Shown: positions 721 to 26,561 of the stretch, in pieces
How the letters are laid out: each line of letters begins with the position of its first letter
How positions within the stretch are numbered: position 1 is the stretch's first letter
DNA from: a virus
Reading direction: 5' to 3' (one strand)
Virus record (IMG/VR): IMGVR_UViG_3300005095_000270
Coordinates: 1-31,776 of that record
Length of the DNA stretch: 31,776 bases
Position numbers and translations under genes: made by a program
Notes under the pieces: generated by a model
The model's database searches: none
What the model saw: only the letters and a program-made list of their open reading frames with translations
Told to the model about the DNA's origin: nothing

Positions 721-2742
721 TCAAAATCCAAAATCTAGCAGCCCCCCTGTATCTACGTTAAGGTTTGTAAAGCCATCGGTTTGCACTTTGTCAATCGACA
801 CAGGCAGATCTGATTTAACTTGAAGCGTCACTTGTGATTTACTTTGCACTTGAGGGTGCTTGATGATGCTGTCAGCGCTTACTGTTCTCGTCTCTTTAGC
901 TCCTTTATATTCTCCTGATAAGTTCACGAGCGTATTCTCGCTTCGCGTCAAGGTAAGCGTCTGCTCTGCTATTGCCCTATCTCTTCTCGTGTCATTAAAG
1001 TGTTCTTGAAGGGATTTTCCTTTAGCATCAGCAAATTGCTGTTGTGATCTAGCTGTATTCATTAATGTTTCATCAAATGCCCGCATTTTATTGTTAAGCG
1101 ATTCAATGCTTGCCCCCCAGTCATCCGGCATGACTGATTTTGGCATTTTGGCTAAGAGCGAAATAAGAAGCTTAAAGGGTGAGATTAAGCCTGAAACGAT
1201 AGTGTTTCCGATCGCGCTAAATTGTGCCGAAACTTTGCTTGCGAAAACACCTATCACTTTACCTATCGCTTTAAATGTGTCCAGCGTCGCTTTCATTGCA
1301 TACTTAACTTTTCTCCAATGACTTGCCATGTAGATTAAGGCGACAACAAGGGTTGCAATGAGTGAGACGATTAACCCAATCGGGTTGGCCATCATTATTG
1401 CGTTTAAGTAAAAAAAGGCAACTTTTACAAGCGCTATCCCCGCTACTATTTCTGGGAAGTAATCTACTAGGGTTTTAAATGCACTATATATAGTCTTTAC
1501 TGCAGAGAATAAGCCGTCGATTGCTTCTGTCACTTTCTTAATGGCTTTATCGCGCCATTTAGCGTTTTTAAAGTTCGTGATTAAGTCTTTAAATACGGTC
1601 GTTAGCTTTTTCATTAACGGCGTAATGATTTTAAACTTCATGCTGTTTAGCGCTATCTTGATGTCGAATAGTGCGTCGTTATATGCTTCGGCTGACGCGG
1701 CATCTTCATCCGTAAGTCCACCACCTAATTCATTAAACTCTTTGCGTGCGCTGGTAAGCCCTTTTGTGCCACTGCGTAGCATGATGAGCATTTTACGACC
1801 ATCTTGACCAAAAGCGGCATCTGCAAAGGCCATCTGCTCCTGATTTGTTTTAAGCTTAGAGAATGACTGTAAAACTAGGTTGTATGCATCTTGCGTGCTT
1901 TTAGCGTGCTCAAGCTGTCCAAACAGAGGGTTCTTACTCTTTTTAAGATAAGCACCGAGCGCCCCGTTTCCCGCTGCTTGAAGCTGGCCGAATCGCTTAG
2001 TAAAGCGAATCATATTACCGCCCATCGTATCGGCGCTAACGCCTGCATGTTCTGCTTGAAATTGCAGTGCTTGCAAGGCATTAAGGGGCATTTTTAAATT
2101 TTGCGCTGTTTTGGTCAGCTTGTCGGCCTCTTCAGACACTTTAGTTGTTAGTGCGAATGCCCCTGCGGCTGCAATATTGACTGCACCAAACCCTTTGGCC
2201 ATGTTACCCAGGCTAAAAGCCACTGCGGTTTTTTTAACTTTAGATATGGCTGAATTTAATGCCTTATAGCGTCGTGTAATGGCGGTTAATTTCTTTTGAT
2301 TGGCTTCTAGCTCTCGACCTAGCCGGCTTTCTTCAGATGCTAGGTTTTTAGTGTTCACACCTTGTTTTTTAAGCGCTTGCCCTGTTTTAGCCAATGTCTT
2401 TTTGTAGCCTTTTTCAGCTTGGCTAAGCAGGTCAAGCTTTGCCTTGGCTTTGTTGAACTGCGCGATTTGTGCCGCACTTAATGCCTTGCCCGCTTTTATC
2501 TGTGCTTGATATTTTGCAATTTTAGCCGTGGCCACAGCCATCTGGTCGCTGTTTGCTTTGTGCTGAGTCAGTGTTTTTTTGTACGTAGCAATGTCTGCCA
2601 GCATTTCTAGCCGGTTACTCACTAAAGCTTTTTGCGCCTTTTGCACCCTGGGTGTAAAATGACCATATTCACCGTTTATTTTTTTAAGCGGTGCGCTGGC
2701 TTGGTCTATTGTTTTCATTACTACCGAGAGGTTCATTTTCAT
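721..2742 (-). CDS. Phage tail tape measure protein
   Basis: This 673-aa protein should set the length of the contractile tail and act during DNA ejection, as Mu gp42 and P2 T do. The N-terminal ~170 residues are Lys/Ala/Gln-rich and predicted coiled coil. A glycine/alanine-rich hydrophobic segment follows at about 175-200. A strongly hydrophobic stretch at about 430-475 fits the membrane-active region usual in this family. AAGGAAG lies just upstream of the ATG. It is the last gene of the left late block. In Mu and P2 the tape measure directly follows the E/gp41-E' chaperone pair; here the HipA-like/HIRAN moron lies in between, and the circularization/baseplate genes that normally follow are ~12 kb away on the other strand. 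Confidence 0.88.
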   Translation of the reverse strand: MKMNLSVVMKTIDQASAPLKKINGEYGHFTPRVQKAQKALVSNRLEMLADIATYKKTLTQHKANSDQMAVATAKIAKYQAQIKAGKALSAAQIAQFNKAKAKLDLLSQAEKGYKKTLAKTGQALKKQGVNTKNLASEESRLGRELEANQKKLTAITRRYKALNSAISKVKKTAVAFSLGNMAKGFGAVNIAAAGAFALTTKVSEEADKLTKTAQNLKMPLNALQALQFQAEHAGVSADTMGGNMIRFTKRFGQLQAAGNGALGAYLKKSKNPLFGQLEHAKSTQDAYNLVLQSFSKLKTNQEQMAFADAAFGQDGRKMLIMLRSGTKGLTSARKEFNELGGGLTDEDAASAEAYNDALFDIKIALNSMKFKIITPLMKKLTTVFKDLITNFKNAKWRDKAIKKVTEAIDGLFSAVKTIYSAFKTLVDYFPEIVAGIALVKVAFFYLNAIMMANPIGLIVSLIATLVVALIYMASHWRKVKYAMKATLDTFKAIGKVIGVFASKVSAQFSAIGNTIVSGLISPFKLLISLLAKMPKSVMPDDWGASIESLNNKMRAFDETLMNTARSQQQFADAKGKSLQEHFNDTRRDRAIAEQTLTLTRSENTLVNLSGEYKGAKETRTVSADSIIKHPQVQSKSQVTLQVKSDLPVSIDKVQTDGFTNLNVDTGGLLDFGF

Positions 2743-3021
2743 GAGCAGCTTCCTTTATTATGCAGGGCTTTCTTTTGTTATTTTTTGGCTGTCTGTTGCG
2801 TATATTTTTAATTGATAGCTTTGTTGATATTATTATCCATAGCCACTTGTTTATAGCGAGACAAGAGGGTTTTAGATAGGTTGTTTAAAGCCTATTCACA
2901 AGTGTTTTTAAACGTATTTTCTGGGTGGAGTTGGGTTATTTAATGAATTGAATTAAAGGCGCACTAGCCTGATCATTCGTTTTTATGCTACTGTTCTAGC
3001 TTTTATGCTGGAGTGGTAAAG
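2743..3021. promoter_or_regulatory. Divergent intergenic region between tape measure and HipA-like moron
   Basis: This AT-rich gap separates the minus-strand tape measure gene from the plus-strand kinase gene and must hold the promoter of the latter. A direct repeat TTTTATGCT occurs at 2981-2989 and 3001-3009, just before the kinase start, and could be an operator or overlapping -10 elements. On the minus strand, TTGTCT-N17-TATGGA and TTGTGA-N17-TATCTA are weak sigma-70-like candidates that could drive the tape measure gene on its own. None of these is strong. Confidence 0.35.
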
Positions 3022-3906
3022 ATGCAAGAAGTCGTTAAAACCATAAGCCGAAACCAAACAGGGCTTGAGCACCAGGGGACAAAATATAAGTATTGGTTTG
3101 ATGATGGGCTTTTTAAAGTTGGAAAAGTAGCGGGAGAAAACTGGGCGGAAGTAGTCTCTTATCAATTATCGCTTCTCTTAAAAATCCCTGCTGCTGAATA
3201 TATTTTTGCTGAATTTAAAATTGAGCAAGAGGATGGTATAAAAGGGACTTATTCTAAGAATTTTATTCTACCAGGCCAAACTTTAATCAATGCAAATGAA
3301 CTATTAAATAAAAAGTCTAATGGCGAATATGATCCTTATGTAAAGTATCACCATCATAATTATACTTTTCAACGAGCGATGTCTCTGATGAAAGTGCTTT
3401 CGCTTAGCCATTCTCCCGTGGAAAATTACAATCCTAATAAGCAGATTATTGGCTATTTTTTATTTGATGTATTAATTGCAAACCAAGATCGTCATCACGA
3501 AAACTGGGGATTTATTTCCTGCCCTATTAATGGTTTCTATTTAGCACCAACTTATGATCATGGTTCTAGCCTTGCCTGTAGAATGCCTATTGATGAACGT
3601 GAAAAAAGATTAGCCTCAAAAGACCTAGGCTACCAAGTTGCAACGTTTGCTAAAAAAGCCAAGTCTGCTTTTCATTACGAAGGAAAGTCATTAAAGACTT
3701 ATAAGCTGGCTGAGCTGTGTGTTCAAAGGTTTCCTGTAGAAAGTCAGGACTGGATTAAACAAATAAAATCGCTTTCGGCCGAGGATTTTCGTTCCATGTT
3801 AGAATTCATCCCTGATAATAGGATGTCGGATATAGAAAAAGAATTTACGTTAAGTTTGCTTCAAACTAATCAACAATATTTATCTGGATTATTAAAAAAT
3901 GTGTAA
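3022..3906 (+). CDS. HipA-like serine/threonine kinase domain protein (moron)
   Basis: The protein carries the HipA-type kinase signatures. The catalytic loop NQDRHHENWG lies at about residues 154-163 and the metal-binding YDHGSS at about 178-183, counted from the ATG at 3022. GTKYKYWF near residue 20 and GENWAEVVSYQLS resemble the N-lobe of HipA_C kinases. At 294 aa it is much shorter than E. coli HipA (~440) because the N-terminal subdomain 1 is missing; that module seems to be in the next gene. The SIS/ISGxQxK autophosphorylation loop is not recognizable. I chose ATG 3022 over in-frame GTG 3013 because GGAG lies at 3009-3012. The gene overlaps the next by 8 nt. HipA kinases phosphorylate host targets such as aminoacyl-tRNA synthetases; the target here is unknown. 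No hipB-type HTH gene is adjacent. Confidence 0.82.
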   Translation: MQEVVKTISRNQTGLEHQGTKYKYWFDDGLFKVGKVAGENWAEVVSYQLSLLLKIPAAEYIFAEFKIEQEDGIKGTYSKNFILPGQTLINANELLNKKSNGEYDPYVKYHHHNYTFQRAMSLMKVLSLSHSPVENYNPNKQIIGYFLFDVLIANQDRHHENWGFISCPINGFYLAPTYDHGSSLACRMPIDEREKRLASKDLGYQVATFAKKAKSAFHYEGKSLKTYKLAELCVQRFPVESQDWIKQIKSLSAEDFRSMLEFIPDNRMSDIEKEFTLSLLQTNQQYLSGLLKNV

Positions 3907-4636
3907 GGAATTAGGCTTGTCTTGGCAAGATAGTAAAACTAGAAAGTGGCTCCCTATTGCTCGTATTTCTAAGCGAGATGATGGGTACTTTTTTCGGTAT
4001 ACCAATGGTGCTATTGAAGCAAAAAAATATGGCTTTAATATGTTGCCAGGGTTCCCTAACTTTGAGAAAGCTTATTGTTCAAGTGAGATTTTTCCTGTTT
4101 TTCAAAATAGGATTATGAATAAAAGCCGTCCAGATCGTAAAGTATTTTTAGATTGGATTAATTTAAATGACGAAAGTTATAGCCCGTTTGAAGAGCTTGC
4201 TAGAACAGGCGGGATTAAAGCCACTGATAATTTACAGCTATACCCAATTCCGGTCTCTAAAGATGGGCTGTATACTTTGAGTTTTTTTGTACATGGCGTC
4301 AGTCATTTACCCCAAAGCTATAAAAAACGTACTCTAAAACTTGAGCCTGAAGATGCGTTATTTTTAATGAAAGACGTTCAGAATAAAATTGACCCTGCCG
4401 CACTCGCTTTAAGAACTGAAGATCCTATTGAATTGGTAGGCTATGTACCTAAGTTTTTTGCTGGTGATTTTGAAAAGCTATTTAATCATAATAAAGAACA
4501 CTTTCACGTCGTTGTTGAAAGGCTTAACTCAGCAGCTCCAGAGCAGTTAAGATTGCTATGCAAGCTTTCTACCCCGTGGCCCAGAGATTTTAAGGCCTTA
4601 AATATGCCTTCTTTTACACCCTTGATTAATATTTAA
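3899..4636 (+). CDS. HipS-like N-terminal domain fused to a HIRAN domain
   Basis: This 245-aa protein starts at ATGTGTAA, which overlaps the kinase stop by 8 nt, so the two are probably translationally coupled. Residues ~18-118 resemble HipA N-subdomain 1/HipS, with a beta-strand YFFRYTNGA, an LPxFPxF-like stretch and YCSSEIFPVFQNRIMNKSRPDR in two parts. Residues ~125-215 look like a HIRAN domain, with LEPEDALFLMKDVQNKIDPA followed by GYVPKFFAGDF. HIRAN domains (first seen in HIP116/Rad5) bind DNA ends. In HipBST systems the separate HipS subunit restrains the HipT kinase, so by inference this protein could neutralize or direct the upstream kinase. The HIRAN call is strong from its motifs; the HipS likeness is moderate. 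The HIRAN part suggests sensing of DNA ends. Confidence 0.75.
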   Translation: MCKELGLSWQDSKTRKWLPIARISKRDDGYFFRYTNGAIEAKKYGFNMLPGFPNFEKAYCSSEIFPVFQNRIMNKSRPDRKVFLDWINLNDESYSPFEELARTGGIKATDNLQLYPIPVSKDGLYTLSFFVHGVSHLPQSYKKRTLKLEPEDALFLMKDVQNKIDPAALALRTEDPIELVGYVPKFFAGDFEKLFNHNKEHFHVVVERLNSAAPEQLRLLCKLSTPWPRDFKALNMPSFTPLINI

Positions 4637-4663: not shown

Positions 4664-4701
4664 AAAAAGGGGCTAAGTGAATAATCACTTAGCCCCTTTT
4701 T
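4664..4701. terminator. Strong bidirectional intrinsic terminator
   Basis: The 17-bp arms at 4664-4680 and 4685-4701 pair perfectly around an ATAA loop, with A and T tracts at the outer ends. It lies 27 bp after the HIRAN gene and 9 bp beyond the E' stop codon, between converging transcription units. It should end both the moron transcript and the minus-strand late transcript before the tape measure gene. Confidence 0.9.
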
Positions 4702-4709
4702 TTATTTCA

Positions 4710-5119
4710 TTATTCTGTTTGGGTGCGCTTTTCTGCATGTGTTCGCCACATGCCTAGGTCATCTATTTCCATTTGGTCCAGCTCTGAGGGTGGCCAGTGA
4801 AATATGATTGCTAGGTCGGCGTACCAGTCTTCTATGCGATCGGGCAGGCTTAATCCATTGTCACGAAAAAACCCAGTGTTTCTACCGATAGATGTGCGAA
4901 ATCTTCCATCTCTAAGTTGTGCAGGTCTTTTTCGCGTAGCTCTGAAATGCGTGGAATCAGTTGCATCATGGCATCGACATCTTGCATTTGAATTAAGCTT
5001 AGCTGTAAGCCTCGTAATTCGCCTGCCTTGGGTTTTCTAAGGGTGACTTCAGTTAGGGTTGTATCGCCCTCTTGAGTAAGCGGGAACTTTAGTTTAACGA
5101 GTTTGCTCTTGTTATTCAT
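4710..5119 (-). CDS. E-E' tail assembly chaperone fusion made by -1 frameshift
   Basis: A -1 shift at TTTTTTC (4871-4865) after codon 85 of E carries translation past the E stop into a 51-codon extension ending at 4710. The total is ~136 aa. The extension includes DWYADLAIIFHWPPSELDQM, the hallmark of P2 E'/GpE-type proteins (xIFHWPPxEL followed by a short helix). The frames are GGT TTT TTC then CGT GAC, a canonical X XXY YYZ slip. Tail chaperone pairs made this way bind the tape measure and recruit tube protein in P2, Mu-like and lambda-like phages. No strong stimulatory stem is obvious just downstream. The E' frame has no good independent start for the conserved part, which supports frameshifting. 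Confidence 0.85.
4850..5119 (-). CDS. Phage tail assembly chaperone, E/gp41 type
   Basis: This 89-aa protein has the E/41/14-family pattern: KLKFPL, then TLTEVTLRKPKAGELRGLQL (the conserved LRxPxxGELRG core), then a helical C-terminal half. It assists tail assembly around the tape measure and is also the N-terminal part of the frameshifted E-E' product. It overlaps the 3' end of the gpM-like gene by 8 nt, which indicates a single transcription unit. The gene order tube, chaperone, tape measure is conserved with Mu except for the inserted gpM and the moron. Confidence 0.85.
   Translation of the reverse strand: MNNKSKLVKLKFPLTQEGDTTLTEVTLRKPKAGELRGLQLSLIQMQDVDAMMQLIPRISELREKDLHNLEMEDFAHLSVETLGFFVTMD
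4865..4871 (-). promoter_or_regulatory. Programmed -1 ribosomal frameshift slippery site
   Basis: On the minus strand this reads T TTT TTC in the E frame, so P- and A-site tRNAs can re-pair on TTT TTT after slipping back one base. It is followed by the E stop 13 to 15 bases later. The conserved E' motif lies in the -1 frame. P2 uses a similar T-run. Confidence 0.85.
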
Positions 5120-5816
5120 TTGTACTTTCCTCTGATTCTAGTTCTGTTGCTAACTGTTCTTTTGCTTGTTTTAGCAGTTTTTTAACGCCTGCCCCGTCGT
5201 CTAAGCTAAGGGCTTTTTCAAAGTATTTAATGGCTAATTTGGGATCATTGAAGCGATAGGCTACTTTTCCCATCAGCGCAAACAGCTTTGACTTAAGCGG
5301 GGTATTGGTAACTACTTTACCTTCAGTTAAGTCTGTAACGGCTCTTAATAAGTACTCTGTTACAAATTCCTTTTCTTCTTTAAAGGCTTTGTTTGAGTAT
5401 ATGTAAACAGTGTCTAGGTAGATTGTTTGCCAGTCACGCTTAAATTCATCTGGCGTTGTTAGTCCGTGTTGAATGGCTTTGTAAAACAGGGGCTCTACCG
5501 CCTCAAACCCTTCAATGTCTAAGCGCCAAAGTAACCAGTAAAAAATAACCTTTTGACCCGCCCAGTTGTCATATTTCATCATGGCTTGCGCGTAGGCTTT
5601 GTATTTTTCAATAAGCTCTTTTTTAAACGGGTGGCGTTCTGCGTCACCATTGGCGTGTTTTAGTGTGATTAAGTCGGCTGGCAAGCTTTCTTTTAAGCTT
5701 GCAAACTCTTTTACACTAGAAGCATTTGGCGCTACCGATGTAATACTGATTCTTTCGATGTCCGCAGGACTTGCCTTAGATTGCATTTTTCGTTTATGCT
5801 TTAAAGCTATGCTCAT
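5112..5816 (-). CDS. M: P2 gpM-like terminase endonuclease subunit, out of its usual place
   Basis: This 234-aa protein matches P2 gpM along its length from what I recall of the family. VIFYWLLWRLDIEGFEAVE and HGLTTPDEFKR correspond to the conserved core. The C-terminal KLFALMGKVAYRFNDPKLAI and ALSLDDGAGVKK form the TPR-like repeat that ends the family. In P2, gpM works with the gpP ATPase to cut concatemers at cos for packaging. There M lies between N (capsid) and L (head completion). Here the N-L gap (9037-9173) is empty, and M sits between the tail tube and chaperone E, overlapping E by 8 nt. Expression with tail genes is therefore likely. No pseudogene signs are visible. Confidence 0.8.
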   Translation of the reverse strand: MSIALKHKRKMQSKASPADIERISITSVAPNASSVKEFASLKESLPADLITLKHANGDAERHPFKKELIEKYKAYAQAMMKYDNWAGQKVIFYWLLWRLDIEGFEAVEPLFYKAIQHGLTTPDEFKRDWQTIYLDTVYIYSNKAFKEEKEFVTEYLLRAVTDLTEGKVVTNTPLKSKLFALMGKVAYRFNDPKLAIKYFEKALSLDDGAGVKKLLKQAKEQLATELESEESTNE

Positions 5817-23599: not shown

Positions 23600-24484
23600 T
23601 TATTCTCTTTCTTTTTTAAAATCATCTCTATGTGCTTCATCAAATAAAAGTTGCGTAGGCAGGTGTTTCAATAAATCATAGCGATAACAAAGTGCTTTAA
23701 AGCCCTCTCCCTGCTTAGAATGGACGTTATAGAACAAAATAACTAATTCATAATCCGATAATTGGGCTCTAAGAAGGTTTGCAAATTCATGCTTTTTATT
23801 TTCATCTTGTTGCTTATTGGTATCTAATTTTGCAGAATCTATAAACCTTATAATACGATATAAGATTCTAAAATAGTGGGGTAGCCAGACTCGCTCTTCA
23901 TTATAAAAAGTGCTCCATATATTTGATGTGCTAATACTGATATTATCGATTTCAGCCCTGCTCCCGTTCAAAACATCTCTTCTAAAGGATGACCTTAATT
24001 GATAATAATAGCTTTTAAATACGCGCCTCCCTTTAAATTCCTCTGAAGCATTAGTATCAACAAGCTTTATTTCTTCAATTACATTATTTAGAACTCCAAA
24101 TAATTGAAATAATGAACTCTCCACTGTTTGGTAGTTCATCACATCGCGAGTGAGCTTCATCTCCTCCTTTTGTACCGCAATGGTATAAAACAATAAAACA
24201 AGTGCTAAACCAGTGAATAACGTAGCCAATCCAGAATAAGACGCTCCAAAATCTGCGGCCTTTTTCAGTTCTTCTTTGCTGAGACTATCAAGACGAACTT
24301 CCCAGGAATAATAAGTAAAAAAAATCAACAAAAGCATTAATATCGTAACTATCAAAAGTCCATGCTTTTTAAATAGGTTAAGCATAAAAATCAAAACCTC
24401 TGTTAATAAATAAAATGGCGCTAAGCAACAACGATTCTTCTTAACAAACCAATTACTTATTTTTTCAAGTATCATTTCATACAC
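23600..24484 (-). CDS. AbiC-like putative phage abortive infection protein
   Basis: The protein fits the putative phage abortive infection (putAbiC) family. It has two transmembrane segments (~42-60 and ~85-104) joined by a short periplasmic-type loop (WEVRLDSLSKEELKKAADFG), then a long cytosolic helical domain. The C-terminal LLRAQLSDYELVILFYNVHS then GEGFKALCYRYDLLKHLP is the family's most conserved part. Such proteins stop phage growth, usually with cell death; the trigger is unknown. GTG 24484 has AAGG 7 bases upstream; TTG 24487 and internal ATG 24385 (GAGG upstream at 11 nt) are alternatives. It is transcribed opposite to the lysis genes, beside a BRCT-domain gene. Confidence 0.78.
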   Translation of the reverse strand: MYEMILEKISNWFVKKNRCCLAPFYLLTEVLIFMLNLFKKHGLLIVTILMLLLIFFTYYSWEVRLDSLSKEELKKAADFGASYSGLATLFTGLALVLLFYTIAVQKEEMKLTRDVMNYQTVESSLFQLFGVLNNVIEEIKLVDTNASEEFKGRRVFKSYYYQLRSSFRRDVLNGSRAEIDNISISTSNIWSTFYNEERVWLPHYFRILYRIIRFIDSAKLDTNKQQDENKKHEFANLLRAQLSDYELVILFYNVHSKQGEGFKALCYRYDLLKHLPTQLLFDEAHRDDFKKERE

Positions 24485-24543
24485 CAATCAACCTTAGTAC
24501 CGCCGTCATATTTGACCGCCATTTTTAATCAATATTTATCGTT

Positions 24544-24628: not shown

Positions 24629-26140
24629 TCAGAGCCAAGCAAGTCCTTTATTTACGCCAATATACTTTTTAATTTCATATTTCATCTCTGATTCTGGCAG
24701 CCTTAAAGGGTCACGATCCACCAACAAACCCTGATCACCGGACTTTATAAATTTTATAAAAGTATCAAAATCTGCTTCAGCCAACTTAATATATTTTTTT
24801 GTACTTACATCAAAAAACAATAATATGAACGATTCATTATCAAACCCAAAAATTTGCAAAACATAGCCTTCAGTCCTGTGTTTAAACAAATAACCTTCTG
24901 AAAACAATTCTTTATCTAAATCGTATTTTGCCCAACCACTAATTTTTGGCCTAATTTTTTTAACTGCAATAGCACGCGCATCTTTGGCTTGCAGCTCAGC
25001 ATCATTAGCTAATAATTCCTTAACCATAGCAGCCCTTAAAGGCTTTGCTTTTTCAATATCAATCCACTCTGTCCATCTAACGCCAAATATTTCCCAATAC
25101 TCACAATCAATTTTAAAAACCCAATCTTTAAAGCAATGCTCTGGTGGGTTTTTTAGCCTAACCCCTTTCTTTTTTTTAGATTTAACAACAGTATTTTTTT
25201 CTTTTTTGACGACCACGCTAGGCTCGACCTCAGTCTTTAAATTCCGTAAAAAATCAGATTCAGAAATAATCCTAATAGAAATTCCTTCTTCTTTATATCG
25301 CACAGCCTTAAGGATTTTTTCTCCATAAGAGGCGTGCTTCCAGTCCCTAGATGCTCCATCGCCAACAACTAAATAACTGACTTTATAAGTTACTCTTGGT
25401 GAAACATAAGCGCCACTTTCAACTGCCTTTTTCTCGCATTCCTTTCGAGTTCCAGAAAGAAATTTACCGGTAAAGCACACATGCTTAAACTCAAGATCAA
25501 CAGTTTCAACACTATCCAATGGAAGGCTACTGGAAGCAGTATCTGCACACCCTGTTTGCTCAAATTCATTTCCGGTTATTTTATTAAGGAGTGCTAATAA
25601 GTCTCCTTTACCACCCTCATCCTGCCCATTTTTAGACAGCAAAAAATTCACGCTACTTAAAACATTACTAAAAGGCCATTGCTCGTGAAGCGCAGAGTGG
25701 CTATCCAGCCAGCTTCCTAAAGAACGCAGCTCTTCATTCGTAATAGCCTGACTGGCGGAAATCCCTCTTAAAACACCCAAACCTTCATCAATTAAGCTAA
25801 TTTTTTCATCGCTAAAAGAATCAATTTCCGACAAAGCAGACTGAATTCGCTTCACAAGCTCATTTTCTTCAGTTTCTTCAAAAAATAACTTACCCAGCAT
25901 GGTTGACAAAAAATCTATCAACCTTTGGCAAACAGGAATATCTGTAAAAAATTCCTGGCCTTTTATCCAACTATGCAAATAAACAACATCATTAGGCGTA
26001 ATCCTTCCATCTGCCAACAGTCCTTCTAAAAACCCCTTTAACTCACCTAAAAAACGTTGCCTATTTCTTGCGTAACTAAATCTTGGAGAAATAGCCTGCC
26101 CATGCTCATCTGTTTCACCAGATTTAATTACTTGAGCCAT
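24629..26140 (-). CDS. BRCT-domain protein of unknown function (cargo)
   Basis: This 503-aa protein has three parts. Residues ~24-150 hold two copies of a helical module (LGELKGFLEGLLADGRITPN and GISASQAITNEELRSLGSWL), a TerB-like/exclusive BRCT-partner arrangement seen in small bacterial BRCT proteins. Residues ~216-300 are a ligase-type BRCT domain (HVCFTGKFLSGTRKECEKKA, YLVVGDGASRDWKHASYGEK). A Lys-rich linker (~312-330) leads to a C-terminal domain (~335-503) that I do not recognize. There is no ligase adenylation motif, so it is not a DNA ligase. BRCT domains bind phosphoproteins or DNA ends. It lies before the AbiC-like gene on the same strand, separated from it by 141 bp, so the two may form one defence unit. 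Confidence 0.72.
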   Translation of the reverse strand: MAQVIKSGETDEHGQAISPRFSYARNRQRFLGELKGFLEGLLADGRITPNDVVYLHSWIKGQEFFTDIPVCQRLIDFLSTMLGKLFFEETEENELVKRIQSALSEIDSFSDEKISLIDEGLGVLRGISASQAITNEELRSLGSWLDSHSALHEQWPFSNVLSSVNFLLSKNGQDEGGKGDLLALLNKITGNEFEQTGCADTASSSLPLDSVETVDLEFKHVCFTGKFLSGTRKECEKKAVESGAYVSPRVTYKVSYLVVGDGASRDWKHASYGEKILKAVRYKEEGISIRIISESDFLRNLKTEVEPSVVVKKEKNTVVKSKKKKGVRLKNPPEHCFKDWVFKIDCEYWEIFGVRWTEWIDIEKAKPLRAAMVKELLANDAELQAKDARAIAVKKIRPKISGWAKYDLDKELFSEGYLFKHRTEGYVLQIFGFDNESFILLFFDVSTKKYIKLAEADFDTFIKFIKSGDQGLLVDRDPLRLPESEMKYEIKKYIGVNKGLAWL

Positions 26141-26276: not shown

Positions 26277-26561
26277 TCAGGCGTGCTTTTCCTGAGAATG
26301 TAAATCCCTCAGTGTTTTTTCTCTTGGCGTTATCTGATCTGGTCCACAGTTGGCAGGCATCTCATCAAACATTAAGTACATTGTGTAGTGCGGAAAAGCC
26401 TTACATAATTTTTGAATAGCTTCTAAGTTTGGATTGCGACGTCCATTTTCATAGTTTTTTAAACTATCAATACTGAAGCCACAAACCTCACAAAATACCT
26501 TTTGTGTTAAATCCTCAGATTCTCTTATAGACTTAATTTTCTTACTTACTGGGGTTGACAT
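26277..26561 (-). CDS. Xre-family HTH repressor, probable lysogeny repressor
   Basis: The 94-aa protein has a helix-turn-helix near residues 18-45 (LTQKVFCEVCGFSIDSLKNY followed by ENGRRNPNLEAIQKLC). Its length is close to P2 C (99). It is transcribed away from the early genes (26626 onward). GAACACC/GGTGTTC operators flank its start. Lack of a C-terminal peptidase domain means it would not be cleaved in SOS induction, as for P2 C. That it is the master repressor is inferred from position. Confidence 0.78.
   Translation of the reverse strand: MSTPVSKKIKSIRESEDLTQKVFCEVCGFSIDSLKNYENGRRNPNLEAIQKLCKAFPHYTMYLMFDEMPANCGPDQITPREKTLRDLHSQEKHA

What the first reader, a model, noticed from the sequence alone, without database searches (positions are those of the whole stretch)
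3022..4636. Two-gene HipA-like kinase plus HipS-like/HIRAN module inside the tail operon
Seen: a short HipA-type kinase without N-subdomain 1, followed with an 8-nt overlap by a protein that combines a HipS-like subdomain with a HIRAN domain; own terminator, opposite strand to surrounding late genes. Known: HipBST systems split the N-subdomain from the kinase and use it as the antitoxin. Inferred: a HipBST-like toxin-antitoxin or defence unit in which a HIRAN domain replaces or supplements the HipB part, perhaps sensing DNA ends made by an incoming phage. Gene order is kinase first, the reverse of HipS-HipT, and no HTH gene is present.
Basis: partly seen in the sequence, partly recalled or inferred. 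Interest (0 to 1): 0.82.

Follow-up and report, generated by a model that had tools for sequence, protein, structure and literature searches.

The report
hipIN kinase toxin-antitoxin cargo in phage
A bacterial virus carries, between two of its tail genes, a known two-gene pair (a HipA-like kinase and its probable HipS-HIRAN antitoxin) that most likely helps its host cell resist other viruses; the pair was already described and listed as a defence candidate, so this is a well-placed new example, not a new kind of system.

Summary
A HipA-like kinase without N-subdomain 1 (3022-3906, +) overlaps by 8 nt a HipS-like + HIRAN protein (3899-4636, +), opposite to flanking tail genes. Kinase motifs are intact. 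The second protein's model matches solved HipS and HLTF HIRAN structures. It is not new in kind: it is hipIN of Gerdes et al. 2021 (PMC8262856), who proposed the same DNA-end-sensing abortive-infection idea, and PADLOC lists the pair as PDC-M03A/B (1e-78, 6e-83). Kinase first is the rule, not a reversal: all 132 relatives fetched by kinase alone have HipN immediately downstream. New here: the pair sits in an accessory slot between tail genes E' and T, empty in 67 of 69 relatives and holding a RelE/ParE-like pair behind the same two-way terminator in a sister phage. Its kinase branches with chromosomal Thiomicrorhabdus/Thiomicrospira copies, not with the main phage clade sampled. Most likely: a kinase toxin held by HipN, carried as lysogeny cargo against superinfection. 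Toxicity, neutralisation, DNA sensing and defence are untested. New member of a known kind.

The parts
3022..3906 (+). HipI-type HipA-family kinase (probable toxin), 294 aa
   Evidence: PF07804 3e-9; PDC-M03A 1.4e-78; core residues conserved
3067..3090 (+). Gly-rich loop equivalent, EHQGTKYK (residues 16-23), with Thr20
   Evidence: alignment
3481..3507 (+). catalytic motif NQDRHHENW (residues 154-162; D156, N161)
   Evidence: invariant
3556..3558 (+). Mg-binding Asp D179 (YDHG)
   Evidence: invariant
3899..3906 (+). 8-nt gene overlap ATGTGTAA (translational coupling inferred)
   Evidence: the same overlap in L055
3899..4636 (+). HipN: HipS-like + HIRAN protein (probable antitoxin/sensor), 245 aa
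   Evidence: PDC-M03B 6.5e-83; model and PDB matches
3899..4213 (+). HipS-like domain (about residues 1-105)
   Evidence: Foldseek to 7ab3_E, 8ezr_A, 7vkb_B; strand/helix order; domain limits are approximate
4271..4570 (+). HIRAN domain (residues 125-224)
   Evidence: PF08797 4e-8
3010..3013 (+). ribosome-binding site GGAG for the kinase ATG
   Evidence: sequence
4664..4701 (.). two-way terminator shared by hipIN and tail gene E'
   Evidence: same element in L156
2743..3021 (.). divergent intergenic region, presumed promoter(s) of kinase and T; two TTTTATGCT copies and a 13-nt inverted repeat
   Evidence: no promoter called above chance, so low confidence
721..2742 (-). tape-measure gene T, one side of the slot
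   Evidence: phrog_8125 9e-91
4710..5119 (-). tail genes E and E' (frameshift extension), other side of the slot
   Evidence: phrog_103 1e-24; frame and stop

Best explanation
This is a hipIN module (PADLOC PDC-M03), a two-gene toxin-antitoxin-like unit carried as cargo by a P2-like, probably temperate phage. Shown by sequence and fold: an intact HipA-family kinase core; a partner with HipS-like and HIRAN domains; strict kinase-HipN coupling; insertion into an accessory slot that is usually empty. Inferred: in the lysogen both proteins are made together by coupled translation; [quoted passage not shown] an infecting phage releases the kinase, perhaps by offering DNA ends or single-stranded DNA to the HIRAN domain; the kinase then phosphorylates a target needed for translation (an aminoacyl-tRNA synthetase in HipA and HipT) and stops growth before the intruder can multiply. 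This protects the prophage's host population and so the prophage.
For: Full-length matches to a paired defence-candidate family. Invariant catalytic core. HipN model matches E. coli and Legionella HipS and DNA-bound HLTF HIRAN. 132/132 relatives fetched by kinase alone have HipN directly downstream, mostly with a 4-20 nt overlap. Mobile-element cargo: beside integrase genes in Vibrio tailless phages and a C. difficile phage, beside the portal gene in other P2-like contigs. The slot holds another toxin-antitoxin-like pair in a sister phage. The same phage carries a putAbiC abortive-infection gene below its repressor-like gene. Closest tested relatives of this design: HipA kinase + DUF3037 (DS-6/HipAD, PDC-M66) defends, needs the kinase, and is toxic without its partner (PMC13092281; PMC12548924).
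Against: No experiment on any hipIN was found. Neutralisation, target and trigger are unknown. HipS likeness is structural only; sequence comparison with HipA failed. A predicted kinase-HipN interface could not be read: the model of an in-frame relative gave pTM 0.71 and no contact data. The three closest relatives sit alone among chromosomal genes, not in evident defence islands.
Confidence: 0.62

Rival explanations
1. Maintenance (addiction) toxin-antitoxin without a defence role: the pair keeps the prophage in the lysogen by killing or arresting cells that lose it.
For: Mobile-element setting; another toxin-antitoxin-like pair uses the same slot; the nearest chromosomal copies are solitary.
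Against: Addiction does not explain the HIRAN domain; a tested kinase-first HipA pair acts in defence; the phage carries another abortive-infection-like gene. The two roles can coexist.
Confidence: 0.18
2. HipN is not an antitoxin but a DNA-targeting or activating subunit: the kinase works with HipN, for example phosphorylating a protein at DNA ends or stalled forks, as a phage regulator or host modifier.
For: HIRAN binds DNA ends in HLTF (PMC8262856); strict pairing; no neutralisation data exist; the HipS-like part lacks sequence similarity to HipA.
Against: Fold match to HipS, a demonstrated kinase inhibitor (PMC10627512); partner of the analogous DUF3037 pair is a neutraliser.
Confidence: 0.12
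3. Sensor reading: HIRAN of HipN binds phage DNA ends or ssDNA, and that binding is what releases the kinase (a specific form of the best explanation).
For: HIRAN fold match to DNA-bound HLTF; conserved N162, D165, A168; proposed by Gerdes 2021; ssDNA-activated kinases regulate other immune operons (PMC13373217).
Against: The HLTF Tyr of NPYDKNA is Ile164 here and GH is GY; no binding data. HIRAN could instead autoregulate or localise.
Confidence: 0.3
4. Inert passenger: a decayed or unexpressed insertion with no function in this phage.
For: No promoter called above chance; insertion is rare in relatives.
Against: Both frames intact, ribosome-binding site present, all core residues kept at 56% identity to the nearest relative.
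Confidence: 0.06

Closest known systems
hipIN modules (HipI kinase + HipN), clade XI of Gerdes et al. 2021 (PMC8262856)
   Same: Short kinase without N-subdomain 1, gene order kinase then HipN, HipN = HipS-like then HIRAN, no HTH gene; relatives include Proteobacteria and Cyanobacteria as in one HipI subclade.
   Different: Nothing in architecture. This copy is in a phage tail-operon slot; its kinase is 56% identical to its nearest relative found.
PADLOC PDC-M03 (candidate phage defence pair)
   Same: Both proteins match over nearly full length.
   Different: PDC-M03 is a prediction; no test was found.
HipBST (HipB-HipS-HipT)
   Same: Kinase without N-subdomain 1 plus a separate HipS-like protein.
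   Different: No HipB/HTH gene, opposite gene order, HIRAN fused to the HipS-like domain, kinase of a relative scores closer to CtkA than to HipT.
HipAD / DS-6 / PDC-M66 (HipA-like kinase + DUF3037)
   Same: Two-gene HipA-family kinase with a non-HipB partner; shown to be toxin + neutraliser and anti-phage.
   Different: Partner is DUF3037/DUF1829, not HipS-HIRAN.
HipL kinases
   Same: Kinase, HipS-like and HIRAN domains in the same order.
   Different: Single chain; here two genes.
P2-like phage accessory hotspots (Rousset et al. 2022, PMC9122126)
   Same: Anti-phage cargo in P2-like prophages.
   Different: The E'-T slot described here did not show up in that paper's text under tail or tape terms.

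Membership tests
hipIN (Gerdes 2021) | HipA-family kinase of about 279-321 aa with the conserved core motifs | tested here: met
   294 aa; PF07804 above cut-off; K32/E43/D156/N161/D179 conserved
hipIN (Gerdes 2021) | no N-subdomain 1; Gly-rich loop near the N terminus | tested here: met
   conserved GTK motif at residues 19-21; fold match of a relative to CtkA
hipIN (Gerdes 2021) | kinase gene first, putative antitoxin gene directly downstream | tested here: met
   8-nt overlap; 132/132 relatives
hipIN (Gerdes 2021) | partner = N-terminal HipS-like + C-terminal HIRAN | tested here: met
   HIRAN by Pfam; HipS-like by structure only
[quoted passage not shown]
   Thr20 in EHQGTKYK
hipIN (Gerdes 2021) | kinase placed in clade XI / HipI subclade by phylogeny | not tested
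   no named HipI reference sequences were used; tree of 114 relatives only
PADLOC PDC-M03 | adjacent M03A and M03B proteins | tested here: met
Type II toxin-antitoxin system | toxin inhibits growth; antitoxin protein neutralises it by binding | not testable with these tools
   no experiment; interface not readable from the model
HipBST | three genes with an HTH HipB | tested here: not met
   no HTH ORF seen between E' and T
Anti-phage defence system | reduces phage multiplication | not testable with these tools
   needs a plaque or growth assay
DNA-end-binding HIRAN | DNA-contact motifs of HLTF HIRAN kept | tested here: inconclusive
   HLTF NPYDKNA aligns to NKIDPAA (N162, D165, A168 kept in 98-100% of 108; the Tyr is Ile in this copy) and HLTF GH to GY; the roles of these residues are partly from memory

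The most novel reading that the evidence does not exclude
A phage-borne toxin-antitoxin in which the antitoxin is itself the sensor: binding of incoming or replicating phage DNA ends by HIRAN moves the HipS-like domain off the kinase and triggers abortive infection. The idea is published for the family (Gerdes 2021) but untested; this copy, in a tail-gene slot that another toxin-antitoxin-like pair also uses, would be a ready test case.
Probability: 0.3. Interest if true: 0.7.

Novelty: new member of a known kind. Interest (0 to 1): 0.33.

Why it matters
It places a predicted but untested defence family (hipIN/PDC-M03) in a defined phage cargo slot between tail genes E' and T, where a sister phage carries a different toxin-antitoxin-like pair behind the same terminator. 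That slot can be used to look for further phage-borne defence genes. The pair is compact (1.6 kb), its catalytic residues are known and tested analogues exist, so toxicity, neutralisation and DNA-triggered release could be tested directly.

Tried and rejected
Close relatives of HipN in IMG/VR by single-sequence patterns: none; the kinase query worked. Search for relatives of the 5112-5816 gene: none. Alignment of a window fusion with unpaired rows was misaligned. It gave confident domains (pLDDT 92.9) but pTM 0.71 and no interface data. Profile comparison of HipN with E. coli HipA found no match to its N-subdomain 1, so the residue equivalent to HipS Trp65 (PMC10627512) could not be assigned; F68-x-N70-R71 is near-invariant in HipN. 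A conserved upstream element shared with L055 was suspected by eye, but the alignment with L056-L058 did not support it. P2-type late-promoter dyads (TGT-N12-ACA) were not found in the slot. Considered and rejected: a broken kinase core (residues intact); chance domain hits (E-values, pairing); HipBST membership (no HipB, other order).

Full report
Observation. The window is an IMG/VR virus record of 31,776 bases that encodes a P2-like myophage: capsid, scaffold, sheath, tape measure, terminase, portal. On the + strand, against the tail genes, lie two ORFs. The kinase is best read from ATG 3022 to 3906 (GGAG 8 nt upstream; the nearest relative L055 starts at the matching ATG). The second ORF is 3899-4636 and overlaps by ATGTGTAA. 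Pfam finds HipA_C (3e-9) and HIRAN (4e-8), both above cut-off. Phage families phrog_8728 and phrog_8026, of unknown function, also match.

Kinase. In 17 aligned relatives the residues equivalent to the kinase lysine (K32), helix Glu (E43), catalytic Asp and Asn (D156, N161 in NQDRHHENW) and Mg-binding Asp (D179) are invariant, and the last three are ~100% in 114 distinct sequences. The role names are assigned from HipA-family knowledge. There is no N-subdomain 1. The best solved relative is CtkA of Helicobacter pylori by sequence and by fold (TM 0.78 on the CtkA length, from the model of relative L099), ahead of HipA and HipT.

Partner. An AlphaFold model of the 245-aa protein with 17 rows has mean pLDDT 85.7 and pTM 0.78. 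Its PDB matches at Foldseek probability 1.00 are of two kinds: HIRAN (human HLTF, DNA-bound entries 4s0n and 6kcs included, with lp_0118 beside them) and HipS (7ab3 of E. coli, 8ezr of Legionella, 7vkb). The order of strands and helices in residues 1-105 is what I expect for HipS, and HIRAN follows at 125-224. The HipS-like part is not found by sequence, so this claim rests on structure.

Family. Gerdes, Baerentsen and Brodersen 2021 (PMC8262856) described hipIN: a HipI kinase lacking N-subdomain 1, followed by HipN, a HipS-like + HIRAN putative antitoxin. They proposed that HIRAN senses phage DNA ends and that the kinase then aborts infection. PADLOC holds the pair as PDC-M03A/B; the window proteins match at 1.4e-78 and 6.5e-83. 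No experimental work on the pair was found in the held library. A related kinase pair with DUF3037 has been tested: defence needs the kinase, and loss of the partner is toxic (PMC12548924; PMC13092281).

Pairing. Loci were fetched by the kinase only: 52 from viral contigs and the best 80 of 383 from genomes. All 132 have HipN directly downstream on the same strand, mostly with a 4-20 nt overlap. Gene order is therefore fixed in this family. In phage records the pair sits beside the integrase of a Vibrio tailless phage and of a Clostridioides phage; in several P2-like contigs it sits beside the portal gene; in L006, a different myophage, it lies just before a tail protein with tape-measure similarity, on the same strand.

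Slot. In relatives found by the tape-measure protein, E and T are separated only by the short E' stretch in 21 of 22; in relatives found by the sheath protein the gap is at most 314 nt in 67 of 69. In the window the gap holds hipIN. In L156/L157 (one contig, sheath 85% identical) it holds, also on the opposite strand, a 99-aa RelE/ParE-like protein (Pfam ParE 0.01, below cut-off; RelE3 0.09) and a 155-aa partner. Both phages have the same two-way terminator, GGGGCTAAGTG-N-CACTTAGCCCC, right after the E' stop. L162 has a small membrane-like ORF there. The junction is thus an accessory slot, rarely filled. The L156 pair as a toxin-antitoxin is a weak call.

Origin. In a tree of 114 kinases the window kinase is sister to chromosomal copies of Thiomicrorhabdus and Thiomicrospira (100/98) and then a Bathymodiolus symbiont (100/100), apart from a clade of 33 phage-borne kinases. 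This suggests a separate capture, probably in a sulphur-oxidising gammaproteobacterium; the host itself is not known. Sampling was by similarity to the window, so the 33-member clade may look cleaner than it is. The three nearest copies stand alone between chromosomal genes.

Setting. The phage has a repressor-like gene at 26277-26561. On the same strand below it are a BRCT protein and a putAbiC gene (23600-24487, 1e-19; AbiP/AbiC in PADLOC). Two separate blocks of likely anti-phage cargo in a probably temperate phage fit a superinfection-exclusion role.

Mechanism. [quoted passage not shown] HIRAN as the sensor of DNA ends is plausible but only inferred: the Asn, Asp and Ala of the HLTF NPYDKNA motif are conserved, but the Tyr is Ile in this copy and the GH motif is GY. 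Toxicity, neutralisation, target, trigger and defence are not shown. I rate toxin-antitoxin-type cargo with a defence role at 0.62, and DNA-end sensing at about 0.3.

Verdict. It is a new member of a known kind, with a modestly useful new fact: the E'-T cargo slot.

Noticed in passing
window 23600-24487 (-): putAbiC protein (PF16872 1e-19; PADLOC AbiP/AbiC), a second likely anti-phage gene, downstream of the repressor-like gene.
   Followed up: partly
window 24629-26140 (-): 503-aa protein with a BRCT domain (Pfam 6e-6; phrog_3989 2e-67; weak PADLOC PDC-S48), between the repressor-like gene and putAbiC; function unknown.
   Followed up: partly
window 5112-5816 (-): A small-terminase-like protein (PF05944 2e-18, phrog_74 2e-38) with a TPR-like C-terminus sits in the tail operon between tube and E, not near the capsid gene; the same order is seen in the relatives.
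   Followed up: partly
L156 6978-7741 (-): RelE/ParE-like 99-aa protein with a 155-aa partner in the same E'-T slot; the partner has no convincing family match.
   Followed up: partly
L162 11714-11953 (-): 79-aa membrane-like ORF on the opposite strand in the E'-T slot of another relative.
   Followed up: no
window 4710-5119 (-): E gene with a P2-like frameshift site (GGTTTTTTCGT) and a -1 extension E' ending at 4710.
   Followed up: partly
L006 8001-9669: A different myophage also carries hipIN directly upstream of a tail protein with tape-measure similarity, on the same strand.
   Followed up: partly
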